DNA from: Hydrogenophaga sp. RAC07
GTDB lineage: Bacteria; Pseudomonadota; Gammaproteobacteria; Burkholderiales; Burkholderiaceae_C
Reading direction: 5' to 3'
DNA length: 64,000 bases
NCBI RefSeq assembly: GCF_001713375.1
Contig: NZ_CP016449.1
Span: 372,001-436,000 of the forward strand
Each line of letters starts with the position of its first letter. Within the stretch, counting starts at the first letter, position 1. A model generated the notes under the pieces. It was not told the DNA's origin. It did no database searches and saw nothing but the letters and a program-made list of their open reading frames with translations. Below, piece by piece: positions 7,345 through 25,598 of this stretch. Made by a program: the position numbers and the translations under genes.

Positions 7345-8243
7345 GCAACGAACACACCCATTACCGGTCTGCGTTTGCCCCTGGCCTGCTGCACGGCCGC
7401 GTGATCGTGGTCACCGGCGGCGGCTCGGGCATTGGCCGCTGCACCGCGCACGAACTCGCCAGCCTGGGCGCCCATGTGGTGCTGATCGGCCGCAAGCTGG
7501 AGAAGCTGCAAGACACGGCCGGCGAGATCGTGGCCGACGGCGGGCGAGCGAGTTTTCACGCCTGCGACATCCGCGACGAGGACGTCGTGCGCACCGTGGT
7601 CACCGCCATCGTCGGCGCGCACGGCCGCATCGACGGCCTGGTGAACAACGCGGGTGGCCAGTACATCACCCCGCTGGAGAACATCAGCGCCAAGGGCTGG
7701 CAGGCGGTGATCGACACCAACCTCACCGGCGGCTTTCTCATGGCGCGTGAGTGTTATGTGCAGAGCATGCAGACCCAGGGTGGTTCGATCGTCAACATTG
7801 TGGCCGACATGTGGGGCTCCATGCCCGGCATGGGCCACAGCGGTGCGGCGCGCGCGGGCATGGTGAACTTCACCGAGACCGCAGCACTGGAATGGGCACG
7901 CAGCGGCGTGCGCGTGAACGCGGTGGCGCCGGGCTACATCGCCTCCAGCGGCATGGACCACTACCCCCCGGAGGCCGGCCCCATGTTGCGCGAGATGCGC
8001 GAGACCGTGCCGGCCGGGCGCTTCGGCAACGAGGCCGAAACCTCGGCCGCCATTGTGTTTCTGCTCTCACCCGCGGCGAGTTTCATCAGCGGCAGCGTGT
8101 TGCGCGTGGATGGCGCGCGCCCGCAGGTGCGCATGGGCTGGGGGCAGGTGGCGGCACCCGTGGAGGTGCAGGACCGCGACGCGGTGAAACCCTTCGATGG
8201 TTTCCACCGCTACGTGACGCCGAAGGTTTTTCAGGATGTTTGA
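7341..8243 (+). CDS. SDR-family oxidoreductase, PECR-like (AtuB position)
   Basis: 300-residue short-chain dehydrogenase. TGGGSGIG (residues 25-32) binds NADP(H); NNAG follows. The usual YxxxK catalytic motif is replaced by S-G-A-A-R (167-171, preceded by His166). This is not decay: the HSGAARAG signature is that of peroxisomal trans-2-enoyl-CoA reductases (human PECR), whose IRVNAVAPGYI and SPAASFISG blocks are also present. A reductase acting on an enoyl-CoA fits the operon. It occupies the place of atuB in the Pseudomonas atu cluster. It overlaps atuC by 8 bp. Exact step is unknown. Confidence 0.85.
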   Translation: MSNEHTHYRSAFAPGLLHGRVIVVTGGGSGIGRCTAHELASLGAHVVLIGRKLEKLQDTAGEIVADGGRASFHACDIRDEDVVRTVVTAIVGAHGRIDGLVNNAGGQYITPLENISAKGWQAVIDTNLTGGFLMARECYVQSMQTQGGSIVNIVADMWGSMPGMGHSGAARAGMVNFTETAALEWARSGVRVNAVAPGYIASSGMDHYPPEAGPMLREMRETVPAGRFGNEAETSAAIVFLLSPAASFISGSVLRVDGARPQVRMGWGQVAAPVEVQDRDAVKPFDGFHRYVTPKVFQDV

Positions 8244-9903
8244 ATCGTCTTTCAATCCGCAGAGCCCGCAGGCGCACGAGCGGCGCGACGCGATGCTTGC
8301 GCGCATCACGCAGCTGCGCGCGCTTGAAGACCGCGCCGCCCAGGCCTCGGCCAAATCCAAACCCGTGTTTGACAAACGGGGCCAGTTGCTGCCGCGCGAG
8401 CGCGTGGCCCTGCTGCTCGACCCGGGCGCACCGTATCTGCCGCTGTGTTCGCTCGCCGGTTTTCTGCAGGACACCAAGGACCCGGCGAAGTCGGTGCCCG
8501 GCGGCGGCATGGTGGCGGGCATCGGCTTCATTGCCGGTGTGCGCTGCATGGTGGTGGCGAGCGACTCGGGCATCGAGGCCGGTGCCATCCAGCCGCGTGG
8601 GCTGGAGAAGATCCTGCGCGTGCAGGACATCGCGCTGCAGAACAAGCTGCCGTTTGTGCACCTGGTGGAAAGTGCCGGCGCCAACCTCATGAAGTACCAG
8701 GTCGAGGGCTTTGTGCACGGCGGCGCGCTGTTCCGCAACCTCGCGCGCCATTCGGCCGCCGGCCTGCCGGTGATCACGGTGCAGCACGGCTCGGGAACGG
8801 CCGGTGGGGCTTACATGCCTGGTCTCTCCGACATCGTGATCATGGTGCGGGGTCGCTCGCGGGCATTTCTGGCCGGGCCGCCGTTGCTGATGGCAGCGAC
8901 CGGCGAGGTGGCCACCGAAGAGGAGCTGGGCGGGGCGGAGATGCACACCGGTGTGTCGGGCCTGGGGGAGTACCTGGCTGAGGATGACCGGGAGGCGCTG
9001 GGGGTGGCGCGGCGGGTGGTGGGGCAGTTGGTTGGGCGCGCCCCCACCCCAACCCTCCCCCAGAGGGGGAGGGAGCTTGAACTCCCTCCCCCTCTGGGGG
9101 AGGGTTGGGGTGGGGGCCACGAGCGCCAACCCCTTCTACCTCCCGACGAACTCCTGGCCCTCATGCCCGCCCACCACCGCGAGCCGGTGGACATGCGCGA
9201 GGTCATGGCCCGCATCGTCGATGGCTCCGAGCTGCTCGAATTCAAGGCGCTCTACGGCGCCGCCACGCTCTGCGTGCAGGCCCGCATCCACGGCCACGCG
9301 GTGGGCATCGTCAGCAACAACGGCCCGATCGACGTGGCCGGTGCCAACAAGGCCACGCACTTCATCCAGTGGATGTGCCAGCTCGGCCACCCCATCGTTT
9401 ATCTGCAGAACACCACCGGCTACATGGTGGGCAAGGACAGCGAGCAGGGCGGGATGATCAAGCACGGCAGCAAGATGATCCAGGCCGTGACGAATGCCAC
9501 CGTGCCGCAGATCACCATCCAGTGCGGGGCGTCGTTCGGTGCGGGGAACTACGGCATGTGCGGGCGCGGCTACGAGCCGCGTTTTCTCTTCAGCTGGCCG
9601 CAGGCCAAGACCGCGGTGATGGGCGGCGAGCAGGCCGCGCGCACCATGAGAATAGTGGCCGAGGCCGGCATGGCGCGCAAAGGCATCACGCCCGACGCGG
9701 TGCAGATGCAGGCGCAGTTCGACCAGATCGTGAACGTGTTCGAGAGCCAGGCCGACGCCTTCTACACCAGCGGTCTGGTGCTCGACGACGGCGTGATCGA
9801 CCCGCGCGACACCCGCGCCACGCTCGCCTTCTGCCTGGACACCTGCGCCGAGGCCGCCGCGCGCGAACCCCGGCCCATGCAGTTCGGCGTGGCGCGCATG
9901 TAG
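8236..9903 (+). CDS. atuC: Acyl-CoA carboxylase beta subunit, probable geranyl-CoA carboxylase (AtuC-like), with palindrome insertion
   Basis: 555-residue biotin-dependent carboxyltransferase. The N-terminal half has GGGMVAGIGF, HGSGTAGGAYMPG and FLAGPPLL; the C-terminal half has GNYGMCGRGY and the biotin-proximal VMGGEQAA. With the alpha subunit at 12172 it would carboxylate a 3-methyl-branched enoyl-CoA. The LVESAGANL, YQVEGFVHGG and MPGLSD variants plus atu gene order favour geranyl-CoA over 3-methylcrotonyl-CoA carboxylase; this is inference. Residues 269-294 (26 aa, APTPTLPQRGREL...) are encoded by a 78-bp perfect palindrome inserted in frame in the linker between the two crotonase domains; without it the protein is 529 aa, close to the family norm. 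Confidence 0.87.
   Translation: MFESSFNPQSPQAHERRDAMLARITQLRALEDRAAQASAKSKPVFDKRGQLLPRERVALLLDPGAPYLPLCSLAGFLQDTKDPAKSVPGGGMVAGIGFIAGVRCMVVASDSGIEAGAIQPRGLEKILRVQDIALQNKLPFVHLVESAGANLMKYQVEGFVHGGALFRNLARHSAAGLPVITVQHGSGTAGGAYMPGLSDIVIMVRGRSRAFLAGPPLLMAATGEVATEEELGGAEMHTGVSGLGEYLAEDDREALGVARRVVGQLVGRAPTPTLPQRGRELELPPPLGEGWGGGHERQPLLPPDELLALMPAHHREPVDMREVMARIVDGSELLEFKALYGAATLCVQARIHGHAVGIVSNNGPIDVAGANKATHFIQWMCQLGHPIVYLQNTTGYMVGKDSEQGGMIKHGSKMIQAVTNATVPQITIQCGASFGAGNYGMCGRGYEPRFLFSWPQAKTAVMGGEQAARTMRIVAEAGMARKGITPDAVQMQAQFDQIVNVFESQADAFYTSGLVLDDGVIDPRDTRATLAFCLDTCAEAAAREPRPMQFGVARM
9040..9117. repeat. 78-bp perfect palindromic repeat inside atuC (repeat family A)
   Basis: Arms 9040-9075 and 9082-9117 are exact reverse complements of 36 bp around a 6-bp spacer (CTTGAA). 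Each arm itself contains a smaller hairpin, CCCTCCCCC-AGA-GGGGGAGGG. The length is a multiple of three and no stop is created, so the host gene stays open. The same core recurs at 11122-11264. It resembles a REP/BIME- or MITE-type intergenic element but lies in a coding sequence. Confidence 0.95.
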
Positions 9904-9933
9904 GCACCCATTCAAAACAACAGGAGACAAGAC

Positions 9934-11106
9934 ATGCAGTTCACCCACGAGCACCGCGAGATCCAGAAGACGCTCAAGCGCTACATCGACGAACACATCA
10001 ACCCGCAGGTGGACGAATGGGAGAAGGCCGAGATCTTTCCGGCGCACGAGGTGTTCAAGGGGCTGGGTGATCTGGGTCTGCTCGGCCTGACCAAGCCCGA
10101 AGCGTTTGGCGGCGCGGGGCTCGACTACTCCTACGGCATGGCCATGGCCGAGACGCTGGGCCACATCCACTGCGGCGGCGTGCCCATGGCCATCGGCGTG
10201 CAGACCGACATGGCCACGCCCGCGCTCGCGCGCTTCGGCAGCGAAGAACTCAAGCGCGAGTTTCTTGCGCCCGCCATTGCGGGCGACATGGTGGGCTGCA
10301 TCGGCGTGAGCGAACCCGGTGCCGGCAGCGACGTGGCGGCCATCAAGAGCGTGGCGCGCAAGGACGGCGACGACTACGTGATCAGCGGCCAGAAGATGTG
10401 GATCACCAACAGCCTGCAGGCCGACTGGATGTGCATGCTGGTCAACACCAGCGACGGCCCGGCGCACAAGAACAAGAGCCTGGTGATGGTGCGCATGCGC
10501 GAGAACGGCAAGCTCGTCAAAGGCATCGAGGTGGCGCAGAAGATCAGGAAGATCGGCATGAACAGCAGCGACACCGGCCTCATCTACTTTGACGAGGTGC
10601 GCGTGCCGCAAAGCAACCGCATCGGCCAGGAGGGCGCGGGCTTCATCTACCAGATGCAGCAGTTTCAGGAAGAGCGCCTGTGGTGCGCGGCCAGCACGCT
10701 GGAGAGCCTGACCAACTGCATTGGCTGGACGGTGGAGTGGGCGCAGGAACGCAAGCTGTTTGGCGCCAGCCTGGCCGACCAGCAGTGGGTGCAGTTCAAG
10801 CTGGCCGAGCTGAAAACCGAGGTGGAAAGCCTGCGCGCACTGACCTACCTGGCGTGTGAACGCTACATCGCCGGCGAAGACGTGACCGAGTGGGCCACCA
10901 TGGCCAAGCTCAAGGCCGGGCGCCTGAACCGCACCGTGCCCGACACCTGTCTGCAGTTCTGGGGCGGCATGGGCTTCACCTGGGAAAACAAGGTCTCGCG
11001 CATGTACCGCGATGGCCGGCTCGCGTCGATTGGCGGTGGGGCGGACGAGGTGATGCTGGGGATCCTGGCGAAGACGATGGGGATTGCGAAGAGGGCGGTG
11101 AAGTGA
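9934..11106 (+). CDS. atuD: Acyl-CoA dehydrogenase, probable citronellyl-CoA dehydrogenase (AtuD-like)
   Basis: 390-residue FAD enzyme of the acyl-CoA dehydrogenase family, inserting a 2,3 double bond in an acyl-CoA. GVSEPGAGSDVA and MWITNS are the flavin/substrate signatures. The C-terminal position used as base in medium-chain enzymes is Gly (IGGGADEVM), but Glu247 in QEERLWCA aligns with the alternative base of isovaleryl-CoA and long-chain dehydrogenases, so activity is expected. That arrangement suits branched substrates such as citronellyl-CoA. A good AGGAGA site precedes the ATG. It follows atuC by 30 bp. Assignment to AtuD rests on order and family. Confidence 0.85.
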   Translation: MQFTHEHREIQKTLKRYIDEHINPQVDEWEKAEIFPAHEVFKGLGDLGLLGLTKPEAFGGAGLDYSYGMAMAETLGHIHCGGVPMAIGVQTDMATPALARFGSEELKREFLAPAIAGDMVGCIGVSEPGAGSDVAAIKSVARKDGDDYVISGQKMWITNSLQADWMCMLVNTSDGPAHKNKSLVMVRMRENGKLVKGIEVAQKIRKIGMNSSDTGLIYFDEVRVPQSNRIGQEGAGFIYQMQQFQEERLWCAASTLESLTNCIGWTVEWAQERKLFGASLADQQWVQFKLAELKTEVESLRALTYLACERYIAGEDVTEWATMAKLKAGRLNRTVPDTCLQFWGGMGFTWENKVSRMYRDGRLASIGGGADEVMLGILAKTMGIAKRAVK

Positions 11107-11121
11107 GGTTGTTTCGCGCGG

Positions 11122-11264
11122 GCCCCCACCCCTGCCCTCCCCCAGAGGGGGAGGGAGCGAAGGCAGAACTCCTCCTGGTTCCCCCTCCCCCTCTGGGGGA
11201 GGGAGCGAAGGCAGAGCTCCCCCTCGTTCCCCCTCCCCCTCTGGGGGAGGGCAGGGGTGGGGGC
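11122..11264. repeat. 143-bp compound palindromic repeat (repeat family A)
   Basis: Lies between atuD and atuE. Outer arms 11122-11155 and 11231-11264 are exact 34-bp reverse complements; between them is a further copy of the CCCTCCCCC/GGGGGAGGG hairpin and a tandem duplication of about 52 bp (unit GAGGGAGCGAAGGCAG...CCCCCT). Three hairpin cores in total. The core is the same as in the element inside atuC at 9040. Confidence 0.92.
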
Positions 11265-11296
11265 TCGCCCGCCGACACATTGCAGGACACCCCACG

Positions 11297-12175
11297 ATGA
11301 CCCCCTTCCACACACAACGCCAAGGCGACACCGAACGCTGGACCCTCAACGACCCCGCCACGCGCAACGCCCTGAGCGACGCCATGGTGCTCGGCCTGTT
11401 TGAAGCCACCCTGCGTGCACAACAAGACGACAGCCTGCGCATCATCGTGCTCACCGGCGCGCCGGGTGCCTTCACCGCCGGTGGCAGCCTGGGCAACTTC
11501 GCCAGCGCCATCGGCCAGCCGCTCAAACCCGGCGAAGACGATCCGCTGATCGCCATGAACCGGGGCTTTGGCGATGTGTTGCACGCGCTGTGTGCGCTGC
11601 CGCAGCTGCTGGTGTGCGCGGTGGACGGCGCGGCCATGGGCGGGGGCTTTGGCCTGGTGTGTTGTGCCGACCATGTGATCGCCACCGAGCGTTCGGTGTT
11701 CGGCACACCCGAGGTCACGCTCGGCCTGCCGCCGGCGCAGATTGCGCCCTTTGTGTGGATGCGGCTGGGCGAGGCGAAAGCGCGCCAGTGTTTGCTGCAG
11801 GGCCTCAGCTTCAAGGCCGAAGCCGCCATGCAGCTGGGCCTGGTGGACGAGGTGGCCGACGACGGCGAACTGGAGCAAGGTTTGCAGGACCGGCTGGCCC
11901 GCTTGAGACGCGCCGCACCCGGCGCGGTGGCCAGCACCAAACGGCTGCTGCAGCGCCTGCGCGGTGACGTGCCCGATTTGCGCGAGGAGGCGGCCCGTGC
12001 ATTTGCTGCGGCGCTGCGCAGCCCCGAAGCCTCAGCGGGACTGTCCGCGTTTGCCAAGAAGCAGCCGGCCCCCTGGGCTGGAAACGTGCCCCCACGCTCC
12101 ACCGCTGCGCGGGTCGCTGCCCCCCAAGGGGGCGAATCCGGCTTGGGGCGGCCCGGCGCCGGAGTTGATTCATGA
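11297..12175 (+). CDS. atuE: Enoyl-CoA hydratase/isomerase, probable isohexenylglutaconyl-CoA hydratase (AtuE-like), repeat-extended
   Basis: 292-residue crotonase-fold protein. The oxyanion-hole segment GAPGAFTAGGSLGNF and the VDGAAMGGGFGLVCCADH block are clear, and PEVTLGLPPAQIAPFV is the variant seen in hydratases acting on branched glutaconyl-CoA esters. Position between atuD and atuF matches atuE. The natural C-terminus of the family ends near the FAKKQPAPW segment (about residue 260); the last 28 residues here are translated from a repeat of family B (12089-12162), so the original stop has been lost and a new one is used, which overlaps the atuF start by 4 bp. Confidence 0.84.
   Translation: MTPFHTQRQGDTERWTLNDPATRNALSDAMVLGLFEATLRAQQDDSLRIIVLTGAPGAFTAGGSLGNFASAIGQPLKPGEDDPLIAMNRGFGDVLHALCALPQLLVCAVDGAAMGGGFGLVCCADHVIATERSVFGTPEVTLGLPPAQIAPFVWMRLGEAKARQCLLQGLSFKAEAAMQLGLVDEVADDGELEQGLQDRLARLRRAAPGAVASTKRLLQRLRGDVPDLREEAARAFAAALRSPEASAGLSAFAKKQPAPWAGNVPPRSTAARVAAPQGGESGLGRPGAGVDS
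12089..12162 (+). repeat. Repeat family B copy at the 3' end of atuE
   Basis: A GC-rich element beginning CCCCCACGCTCCACCGC, with an inner GCCCCCCAAGGGGGC palindrome and ending GGGGCGGCCCGGCGCCGG. The same element is at 31618-31694 and, in reverse orientation, at 25521-25598. Here it is translated as part of atuE. Confidence 0.9.
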
Positions 12176-14088
12176 AACGCCTCCTGATTGCCAACCGCGG
12201 CGAAATCACCCGCCGCGTCATCCGCACCGCGCACGCCATGGGCATCGAGACCGTGGCCGTGTTTTCCGAGTCCGACGCCCACGCGTTGCATGTGCGCGAG
12301 GCCACCAGCGCGTTTGCGCTGGGCGGCACCACCTCGGCCGAGTCGTACCTGCGCGTGGACCGCCTGCTGGACGCGGCGCTGGCCACCAACGCCGACGCGG
12401 TGCACCCCGGCTATGGCTTTCTCAGCGAGAACGCCGACTTCGCGCAGGCCGTGATCGACGCCGGCCTCACCTGGGTCGGTCCACCGCCAGCGGCCATCCG
12501 CGCGCTGGGCAGCAAGTCGGCCGCGAAGGCACTGGCCGTGGCGCACGGTGTGCCTTGTCTGCCCGGCTACTTTGGCGACGACCAGAGCGAATCCACGTTT
12601 GAGGCCGAGGCGCAGCGCGTGGGGTTTCCGCTGATGGTGAAGGCCGTGGCCGGTGGCGGCGGGCGCGGCATGCGCCTGGTGCACAGCGCCGACCAGTTGT
12701 TGCCTGCGCTCAGGGGCGCACGCTCGGAAGCCCTGAGCGGTTTCGGCAATGGCGACCTGCTGATCGAGCGCGCGCTGCTGCGCCCCAGGCATGTGGAGGT
12801 GCAGGTGTTTGCGGATGCGCACGGCCACTGCGTGCACCTGGGCGAGCGCGACTGTTCGGTGCAGCGTCGGCACCAGAAGATCATTGAAGAAGCGCCGAGC
12901 CCTGCGGTGTCGCCCGAGCTGCGGGGCGAATTGGGGCGCTGCGCCGTGGCGCTGGCGCAGGCGGCGGGGTATGTGGGGGCGGGGACGGTGGAGTTTTTGT
13001 TGGAGGGCAGCGCTTTCCACCTCATGGAGATGAACACGCGCCTGCAGGTGGAGCATCCCGTCACCGAGGCACTCACCGGTCTTGACCTCGTTGAATGGCA
13101 ACTCCGCGTCGCGCGCGGCGAACCGCTGCCCCTCACGCAGGCACAGATCACCTTCAACGGCCACGCCATCGAAGTGCGCCTGTGCGCCGAAGACGAGCAC
13201 CACACACCGCACACGGGCCGCGTGCTGCGGTTCGCCGAACCGCCGATGGTGCCCGGCCTGCGCTTTGACCACGCGCTGGAAACCGGCAGCGAAGTCAGCC
13301 CGCACTTTGACGCCATGCTCGGCAAGCTGATCGTGCACGCGCCCACCCGCAGGGATGCCATCGACCGCCTCGCCCACGCGCTGGACCAGACGCGTGTGCT
13401 TGGCCTGCCGACCAACCGCGCGTTCCTTGCGGCCTGCCTGCGCCACCCGGTGTTTCACGAGGGCGGTGCGCTCATTCCCTTTCTGGCCGAGGAGGGCGAC
13501 ACCGTTCGCGCCATGCTGCTGCCCCCGCCCGACGCGGTGCTGGCCAGCGTGCTCGGCGCGGCCTTCAGCGCGCAGGCCCCGGCCACCGCGCTGGCCTGCC
13601 CCTTTGCCCGCCCCCTGCGCTGGCAACACGGCGAGCAGGTGCTGGACCTGGCCGCGCGAGAGCTCGGGCAGGGCGCGCTGAGCGTGGCCTGGGGCGAGCG
13701 CACAGCGCAGGCGCGCGTGAGCCCGGGCCGCGTGGTTGTGGACGGCATCGGCTGGCCTGTGGCGGCTGTGTCGCTCGGCGCGGGCCGCTGGCAGGTGCAA
13801 GCCGGTGCCCACACCATCGAGCTGCTTGACCTCAGCCTCGTGCCGCGCGAGCGCGCAGGCGGTGTGTCGGCCGCGCGCGAGTTGCGCGCCCCGTTCAACG
13901 GCAAGCTCATCGCCGTGCACGCCCAAGCTGGCGCCACCGTTGCCAAAGGCGAGCCGCTGCTGGTCATCGAATCCATGAAGCTCGAACACACCCTGGCCGC
14001 GCCGCGCGACGTGACCGTGGACAACGTGTCGGTGGCCGCTGGCCAGCAGGTCGCGCCCGGACAACTGCTCATCACCTTTGCCGCATGA
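12172..14088 (+). CDS. atuF: Acyl-CoA carboxylase alpha subunit (biotin carboxylase-BCCP), AtuF-like
   Basis: 638 residues. Residues 1-450 are an ATP-grasp biotin carboxylase: RLLIANRGEITRR at the start, the GGGGRGMRLV ATP loop, HVEVQVFADAHG and the EMNTRLQVEHPVTE catalytic block. A linker follows and the last 75 residues are a biotinyl domain with ESMKLEH; Lys603 is the predicted biotinylation site (MKL rather than the commoner MKM). It charges biotin with bicarbonate for the beta subunit at 8236. Length matches alpha subunits of methylcrotonyl- and geranyl-CoA carboxylases. Overlaps both neighbours by ATGA. Geranyl specificity is inferred from context. Confidence 0.88.
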   Translation: MKRLLIANRGEITRRVIRTAHAMGIETVAVFSESDAHALHVREATSAFALGGTTSAESYLRVDRLLDAALATNADAVHPGYGFLSENADFAQAVIDAGLTWVGPPPAAIRALGSKSAAKALAVAHGVPCLPGYFGDDQSESTFEAEAQRVGFPLMVKAVAGGGGRGMRLVHSADQLLPALRGARSEALSGFGNGDLLIERALLRPRHVEVQVFADAHGHCVHLGERDCSVQRRHQKIIEEAPSPAVSPELRGELGRCAVALAQAAGYVGAGTVEFLLEGSAFHLMEMNTRLQVEHPVTEALTGLDLVEWQLRVARGEPLPLTQAQITFNGHAIEVRLCAEDEHHTPHTGRVLRFAEPPMVPGLRFDHALETGSEVSPHFDAMLGKLIVHAPTRRDAIDRLAHALDQTRVLGLPTNRAFLAACLRHPVFHEGGALIPFLAEEGDTVRAMLLPPPDAVLASVLGAAFSAQAPATALACPFARPLRWQHGEQVLDLAARELGQGALSVAWGERTAQARVSPGRVVVDGIGWPVAAVSLGAGRWQVQAGAHTIELLDLSLVPRERAGGVSAARELRAPFNGKLIAVHAQAGATVAKGEPLLVIESMKLEHTLAAPRDVTVDNVSVAAGQQVAPGQLLITFAA

Positions 14089-25520: not shown

Positions 25521-25598
25521 GGACGGCCGCCGGGCCGCCCCAAGGCCGGCCAGCCCCCTCGGGGGGCAGCGCAGTACACGAAGTGACAAGCGTGGGGG
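25521..25598 (-). repeat. Repeat family B copy between livM and livG
   Basis: Reverse complement of the element seen at 12089 and 31618: CCCCCACGCTTG at 25598 down to GGGGCGGCCCGGCGGCCG, with inner GCCCCCCGAGGGGGC palindrome. It occupies almost the whole 103-bp gap between the two genes of the operon. Confidence 0.9.

What the first reader, a model, noticed from the sequence alone, without database searches (positions are those of the whole stretch)
9040..9117. A 78-bp perfect palindrome sits in frame inside a carboxylase gene
The two 36-bp arms are exact reverse complements, with a nested hairpin in each arm, and the length (26 codons) preserves the frame of the carboxylase beta subunit. The element is of the kind normally confined to intergenic DNA and occurs again, in compound form, 2 kb away. 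It lands in the linker between the N- and C-terminal carboxyltransferase domains, a place that may tolerate insertion. It adds an exposed Pro/Gly/Arg-rich peptide and a very strong mRNA hairpin. This is either a recent hop of a mobile palindromic repeat or a selected regulatory/structural insert.
Basis: seen in the sequence. Interest (0 to 1): 0.8.

Follow-up and report, generated by a model that had tools for sequence, protein, structure and literature searches.

The report
Palindromic repeat inside a carboxylase linker
A 78-base mirror-image DNA repeat is translated as a probably floppy 26-residue spacer inside an enzyme, and related bacteria carry other kinds of repeat in that same spacer, so this stretch of the gene behaves like a landing strip for mobile DNA.

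Summary
Two exact 36-nt inverted arms (9040-9075, 9082-9117) and a 6-nt spacer fill codons 269-294 of a 555-aa carboxyltransferase beta subunit, in frame. It belongs to an interspersed palindromic family (29 core matches, 23 sites in this genome). It is not a recent hop: relatives carry it at the same place with the same 3' flank. It is not confined to spacers: 7 of 23 sites are in frame in genes (UvrA, UvrD, DnaE2 type and others). No RAYT link: 0 of 9 RAYT loci in 8 genomes have this core in the fetched flanks.

The larger finding lies outside the coordinates. In 117 distinct orthologue linkers, the linker (69-112 aa counted with its anchors) varies while the rest hardly changes length. It holds seven insert types without detectable mutual similarity, in frame; four are shown to be multicopy in their genomes. 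A tree needs at least 15 insert/no-insert changes (8 forced by supported branches). Strong hairpins: 1.73 per kb in the linker, 0.97 in short gaps between operon genes, about 0.01 in other coding sequence.

Best reading: a relaxed linker that behaves like spacer DNA and keeps whatever small repeat is active. In-frame palindromes are known (Rickettsia palindromic elements, intragenic REPs); many families in one linker I found in none of eight searches.

The parts
8236..9903 (+). Host gene: acyl-CoA carboxylase carboxyltransferase beta subunit (geranyl-/methylcrotonyl-CoA carboxylase type), 555 aa
   Evidence: ORF; PF01039 E 7.4e-110; best solved relative 5ikl geranyl-CoA carboxylase beta, E 3.9e-174
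9040..9117 (+). Family A palindromic repeat, translated as residues 269-294 APTPTLPQRGRELELPPPLGEGWGGG
   Evidence: pLDDT <50 over residues 268-295
9040..9075 (+). left 36-nt arm, with nested hairpin 9053-9073
9082..9117 (+). right 36-nt arm, with nested hairpin 9084-9104
11121..11264 (.). Compound copy (three cores) between the acyl-CoA dehydrogenase and enoyl-CoA hydratase genes
   Evidence: family A hairpins in a gap at about the same distance from the carboxylase in L048 and L066
9934..11106 (+). acyl-CoA dehydrogenase gene of the same operon (used as a coding control)
12172..14088 (+). biotin carboxylase / biotin carrier alpha subunit, likely partner of the carboxyltransferase (used as a coding control)

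Best explanation
The palindrome is a non-autonomous interspersed repeat (a REP/MITE-like 'family A' element) that entered the interdomain linker of this carboxylase in an ancestor of several Hydrogenophaga species and was kept because its length is a multiple of three, its reading frame is open and the linker tolerates extra disordered residues. Shown: identity of the element, its in-frame position, its other copies in the genome, its presence and absence across relatives, turnover of different repeats at the same linker, and length conservation of the rest of the protein. Inferred: that the process is insertion under relaxed constraint, followed by drift, replacement or partial deletion (L146 looks like a scar), without a function for the RNA hairpin or the peptide. 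Not known: the enzyme that moves families A and B.
For: Linker occupants in 117 distinct orthologue linkers: A and B (similar to each other), and types that I call E (GTCATTCCCGCG), D (CACCCCGGACTCGATCCGGGG), S (CCGTTCGCCCTGAGC), R (GGGGTCAGATTCC), G (GGTCAAATCGGCCTCC...GCAAGCAGCTAT) and H (GTTGGGCGTTGAGCG). With host flanks trimmed, of 55 pairs among 11 representative inserts only A-B, E-E and R-R reach 5 or fewer of 500 shuffles. Multicopy in the host genome: E 23 and 22 places in G254 and G070; D 13 in G134, 0 in 3 others; G 40 (capped), 19, 9 and 8 places in four genomes; A/B 29 cores in G000. Tree: at least 15 insert/no-insert changes, 19 over 8 classes. Hairpins: linker 12 in 6.9 kb, gaps of up to 400 nt between operon genes 13 in 13.5 kb, five coding sequences 4 in 326 kb. 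In the genus 17 of 19 genomes with A/B in the linker have more than one A/B core elsewhere, against 2 of 27 others. N-part length 184 in 113 of 117 rows. Disorder at 268-295.
Against: All 22 A/B linker copies are read in one frame (PTPTLP/TPTLSR type), although the +1 frame is free of stops in 16 of the 20 that the script reached, and copies in other genes of this genome use all three frames: neutral tolerance alone does not predict this unless the copies share few origins. The two arms here are still perfectly paired although the insert is older than the species. E in L199's genome has only 2 places, one of them the linker itself. Type H was not shown to be a repeat: no second copy in its own locus. 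The Fisher test ignores phylogeny and counts half copies and the scar as A/B. Classes were assigned by eye.
Confidence: 0.77

Rival explanations
1. True insertion hotspot: the linker DNA (or an earlier palindrome in it) is a preferred target for several repeat-moving machineries, so palindromes land here more often than in other tolerant DNA.
For: 1.73 strong hairpins per kb in the linker against 0.97 in short operon gaps; 5 of the 11 family A cores of the genome lie in 2.2 kb of this operon; mosaic and half copies (L150, L142, L077, L067).
Against: The excess over true spacers is under two-fold and shared ancestry is not removed; an earlier, looser gap definition gave 0.45 per kb because it counted unaligned stretches. 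Dissimilar families use the site; residual linker on the 5' side differs between loci; no shared target word was established.
Confidence: 0.1
2. Selected insert: the RNA hairpin or the Pro/Gly/Arg-rich peptide has a function (translational pausing at the domain boundary, mRNA stability, linker length).
For: Very stable hairpin; one reading frame in the 22 A/B copies; stems still well paired in several relatives.
Against: 62 of 103 confidently classed orthologues have no insert and others have different ones; no terminator-like site on the + strand in 8900-11400; predicted disorder.
Confidence: 0.08
3. RAYT-mobilised REP in the strict sense.
For: One Y1_Tnp gene in this genome; a repeat sharing a 21-nt word with the flank of that gene did enter the linker of L087.
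Against: 0 of 9 RAYT loci in 8 genomes have A/B cores in the fetched flanks of about 1.5 kb.
Confidence: 0.03
4. Assembly artefact.
For: Inverted repeats can be misassembled.
Against: Single-contig genome; orthologous inserts with their own substitutions in other assemblies; open frame kept.
Confidence: 0.01

Closest known systems
Rickettsia palindromic elements (RPE; Ogata et al. 2000, 2002; seen here only through passages of PMC10969869 and PMC3733652)
   Same: Palindromic repeats inserted in frame in genes for ordinary proteins, adding an open peptide.
   Different: Other host; about 150 bp as first reported (PMC10969869 passage) against 78 here; here several dissimilar families enter one linker of one gene. 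No RPE sequence was compared.
Intragenic REPs of the GTAG/CGTC superfamilies (Di Nocera et al. 2013, PMC3733652; passages and section 15 seen)
   Same: Short palindromes and dimers encoding 20-30 residues inside genes, including uvrA, a UvrD/REP helicase and dnaE2; different REPs at about the same site of recB in X. campestris and X. oryzae.
   Different: No GTAG or CGTC tag at the ends here; no RAYT beside them; more insert types at one site.
RAYT-associated REPs / REPINs (search listings; otherwise recalled)
   Same: Paired inverted units, low to moderate copy number, spread across a genus.
   Different: The RAYTs found here lie beside a different repeat.
Coding palindromes in nematomorph mitochondrial genes (PMC6649704, start of abstract in a search listing only)
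   Same: Long inverted repeats inside coding genes.
   Different: Mitochondrial; not compared in sequence or mechanism.

Membership tests
Interspersed small palindromic repeat (REP/MITE-like, broad sense) | Many dispersed copies in one genome | tested here: met
   29 forward core matches, which I group into 23 sites; 0 for the reversed control pattern
Interspersed small palindromic repeat (REP/MITE-like, broad sense) | Presence/absence polymorphism among orthologous sites | tested here: met
MITE | Target-site duplication | not tested
   No exact empty site in a near-identical strain was available
GTAG/CGTC-tagged REP | GTAG or CGTC at one end | tested here: not met
   Ends read GCCCCCACCCC...GGGGTGGGGGC; neither word, in either orientation, within 9030-9127 (read)
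RAYT-associated REP / REPIN | Repeat flanks the RAYT gene | tested here: not met
   0 of 9 RAYT loci in 8 genomes
Rickettsia palindromic element | In-frame insertion in protein-coding genes | tested here: met
Rickettsia palindromic element | RPE family sequence | not tested
   No RPE sequence was fetched or compared
Rickettsia palindromic element | Rickettsia host | tested here: not met
   Genome is in the genus whose members have the same linkers as records titled Hydrogenophaga

The most novel reading that the evidence does not exclude
The interdomain linker of this carboxylase is a standing landing pad on which Comamonadaceae repeatedly domesticate whichever palindromic mobile repeat is active in their genome, in one preferred reading frame, so that new protein segments are made again and again from dissimilar mobile DNA at one defined site.
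Probability: 0.22. Interest if true: 0.65.

Novelty: new variant of a known kind. Interest (0 to 1): 0.5.

Why it matters
In-frame palindromic repeats are known, but the reports seen here describe them spread over many genes. Here one short linker has sampled seven dissimilar insert types across one bacterial family, with empty, partly deleted and replaced states beside each other. That gives a natural, countable series for asking how mobile DNA becomes protein sequence, whether frame and peptide are selected, and what moves families A and B, for which no transposase was found. It also warns annotators that 'PTPTLPQRGRE'-type segments are repeat DNA and not conserved domains.

Tried and rejected
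RAYT link: searched for Y1_Tnp in this genome and 7 others; the loci carry GGGGTCAGA-type words, not A/B cores (no shuffle control was made for those words). Rfam: no match in 7800-12500 at gathering scores. Terminator reading: nothing on the + strand in 8900-11400, one chance-level site on the - strand. Frame test: suggestive only, because the number of independent A/B insertions is uncertain; the script stopped with an error after 20 of 22 copies (L075 and L067 not scored for stops in other frames; their frame was read). Structure: the AlphaFold model is moderate (mean pLDDT 71.6) with other low stretches such as 210-243, so disorder of the insert is supported but not strongly. Tree labels: the first count included doubtful remnants (31 changes over nine labels); with 14 of 117 rows dropped (half copies, the scar, doubtful or unclear linkers) a more thorough tree needs 26, or 19 with A and B merged; its bootstrap had not settled. 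Hotspot: the first gap control (15 hairpins in 33.7 kb, 0.45 per kb) counted any unaligned stretch; restricted to gaps of at most 400 nt it is 13 in 13.5 kb, 0.97 per kb, so I lowered the hotspot odds, and those of the novel case a little, and raised the main reading slightly. One search also found 4 hairpins in 143 kb of flank outside the aligned genes, left out of the coding and gap counts. Similarity of types: a first test still held host flanks and gave spurious likeness; trimmed, only A-B, E-E and R-R remain. Type S was not counted in its own genome, but L176 shares 15-18-nt words with the flanks of 5 of 8 other loci examined. L046's insert was first labelled S by eye and is of unknown type. 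Which of A or B sits in the linker does not clearly follow the number of A copies elsewhere (p 0.08). The reversed control of the B pattern gave a hit in 1 of 67 genomes (G315).

Full report
What is there. The window belongs to a complete 4.67-Mb genome in a genus whose members have the same linkers as records titled Hydrogenophaga (L043/L131, L044/L134 and others). At 9040-9117 two exact 36-nt inverted arms with a 6-nt spacer fill codons 269-294 of a 555-aa carboxyltransferase beta subunit. The nearest solved relative by sequence is geranyl-CoA carboxylase beta, 5ikl; the alignment puts the insert between the N- and C-terminal halves, where 5ikl is shorter. The strand folds into one long hairpin, z -10.5.

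It is an interspersed repeat. The pattern CCCTCNCCC(0-10)GGGNGAGGG has 29 forward matches in this genome, with 0 for the reversed control; I group them into 23 sites. Two subfamilies are evident: A (CCCTCCCCC) and B (CCCTCTCCC). Family A cores occur in 24 of 67 genus genomes (0-36 copies), B in 38 of 67 (0-40 copies). An eighth, a histidine kinase (L038), has domain support on one side only. Pfam was given 20 of the 23 spanning frames listed. uvrA, a UvrD/REP helicase and dnaE2 are also among the genes in which Di Nocera et al. report REPs (PMC3733652; passages and section 15). Naming the polymerase DnaE2 rests on recall of that family's features; Pfam says Pol III alpha type.

The linker collects repeats. 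The search for related loci kept 80 orthologous loci, the best of 586; genus and family searches added others (46 of 67 genus genomes and 124 of 299 family genomes had a match at the thresholds chosen). I fetched all 45 other genus matches and 40 of the 44 family matches outside the genus with at least 72% identity (G009, G045, G048 and G197 were left out). The script used 143 loci with 117 distinct linkers; L100-L122, of which 15 of 23 are Bradyrhizobium, were not put into it. Outside the linker, length hardly changes (N part 184 in 113 of 117 rows, four others not examined; C part 191 in 98 of 115 rows where the anchor was found, 195 in 12, other values in 5); the linker with its anchors runs from 69 to 112 residues. 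The long linkers hold DNA of different kinds: A or B palindromes in many Hydrogenophaga and in Ramlibacter (L060, L075, half copy L077), and elsewhere types E (L187, L190, L199), D (L177), S (L176), R (L087, L186), H (L084) and G in about 14 loci. With host flanks trimmed, 11 representative inserts give 55 pairs, of which only A-B, E-E and R-R are alike beyond shuffling. Multicopy status in the own genome was tested for four types: A/B (29 cores); E, 23 and 22 places in G254 and G070 but only 2 in G198, one of them the linker; D, 13 places in G134 and 0 in three other genomes; G, 40 (capped), 19, 9 and 8 places in G200, G015, G002 and G099. S shares 15-18-nt words with flanks of 5 of 8 other loci and R a 21-nt word with the RAYT locus L012; H was not shown to recur.

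Turnover. On a tree built without the linker, with 14 of 117 rows dropped as doubtful, at least 15 changes between insert and none are needed (8 forced by well-supported branches), and 19 over eight classes; A/B alone needs 8 (5 forced). L043 is the nearest row to the window gene and carries family A; L046, sister to that pair, carries an insert of unknown type, and L132 (A) and L044 (B) complete the five-row clade: replacement within a close group. L043, L049, L066 and L132 share the window's 3' flank CACGAGCGCCAACCCCT, so the insert is older than this species. L146, beside L048 and L137, keeps the start of the element but lacks the rest, which I read as a deletion scar. L187 and L190 carry the same insert with the long arm segment on opposite sides, as if the hairpin had flipped.

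Tolerance or hotspot. With a fixed hairpin threshold in 58 loci, the linker has 12 hits in 6.9 kb (1.73 per kb) and the five coding sequences 4 hits in 326 kb. Gaps of at most 400 nt between aligned operon genes have 13 in 13.5 kb, 0.97 per kb; a looser gap definition gave 15 in 33.7 kb. The linker therefore behaves like spacer DNA, less than two-fold denser than true spacers and over a hundred-fold denser than coding DNA; shared ancestry is not removed from these counts. In the genus, A/B in the linker goes with A/B elsewhere in the genome: 17 of 19 against 2 of 27 genomes with more than one other core (p 1.5e-8, not corrected for phylogeny). What is kept depends on what is active. The AlphaFold model leaves residues 268-295 unstructured (pLDDT below 50), although the model as a whole is moderate.

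What does not fit. All 22 A/B copies in the linker are translated in the same frame; +1 is free of stops in 16 of 20 scored, and copies in other genes of this genome use all three frames. Common descent explains part of this; selection against the other frames could explain the rest. The window copy has perfectly matched arms although it is not young; arm-to-arm conversion is possible but untested.

Mobiliser. The only Y1/RAYT-type gene found in the genome (C1:3260415-3260741) lies beside GGGGTCAGATTCC-type repeats. Across 8 genomes, 0 of 9 such loci have an A/B core in the fetched flank and 8 of 9 have the GGGGTCAGA type. Families A and B are therefore without a known mover.

Literature. Rickettsia palindromic elements and intragenic REPs are clear precedents (PMC10969869 passages; PMC3733652), including different REPs at about the same site of recB in two Xanthomonas species. 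Eight searches listed no paper whose title or shown abstract reports one linker holding many repeat families, or palindromic repeats of Hydrogenophaga; only open-access papers are held and the listed papers were not read through.

Verdict. The finding is real and is a new case of a known phenomenon; the multi-family recurrence at one linker is the part worth attention.

Noticed in passing
window 12090-12175: The last ~30 codons of the enoyl-CoA hydratase ORF lie past the end of the family-model matches and contain GCTGCCCCCCAAGGGGGC, another small palindromic word with near copies at 25553 and 31645 (0.01 expected): perhaps a C-terminal tail made of repeat DNA.
   Followed up: partly
L126, L033, L217, L010, L219, L129 (own genome C1:928757, 1440004, 1742638, 3804237, 2714871, 1239694): A/B cores in frame inside UvrD, DnaE2-type polymerase, DUF3418 helicase, UvrA, M20 amidohydrolase and B12 radical SAM genes, recalling the repair-gene bias described for REPs in PMC3733652.
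   Followed up: partly
L187 and L190 linkers: Same insert, but the extra segment sits in opposite arms, as if the hairpin had inverted between two species.
   Followed up: no
L012 (own genome C1:3260415-3260741): Only Y1/RAYT-type gene found in the genome, flanked by GGGGTCAGATTCC-type repeats; the carboxylase linker of L087 shares a 21-nt word with it.
   Followed up: yes
L150 linker: Hybrid palindrome: left outer arm of family A type, right arm of family B type, in a clade where the neighbours have no insert.
   Followed up: no
window 9040-11264: Five of the eleven family A cores of the whole genome lie in this 2.2-kb stretch of one operon.
   Followed up: partly
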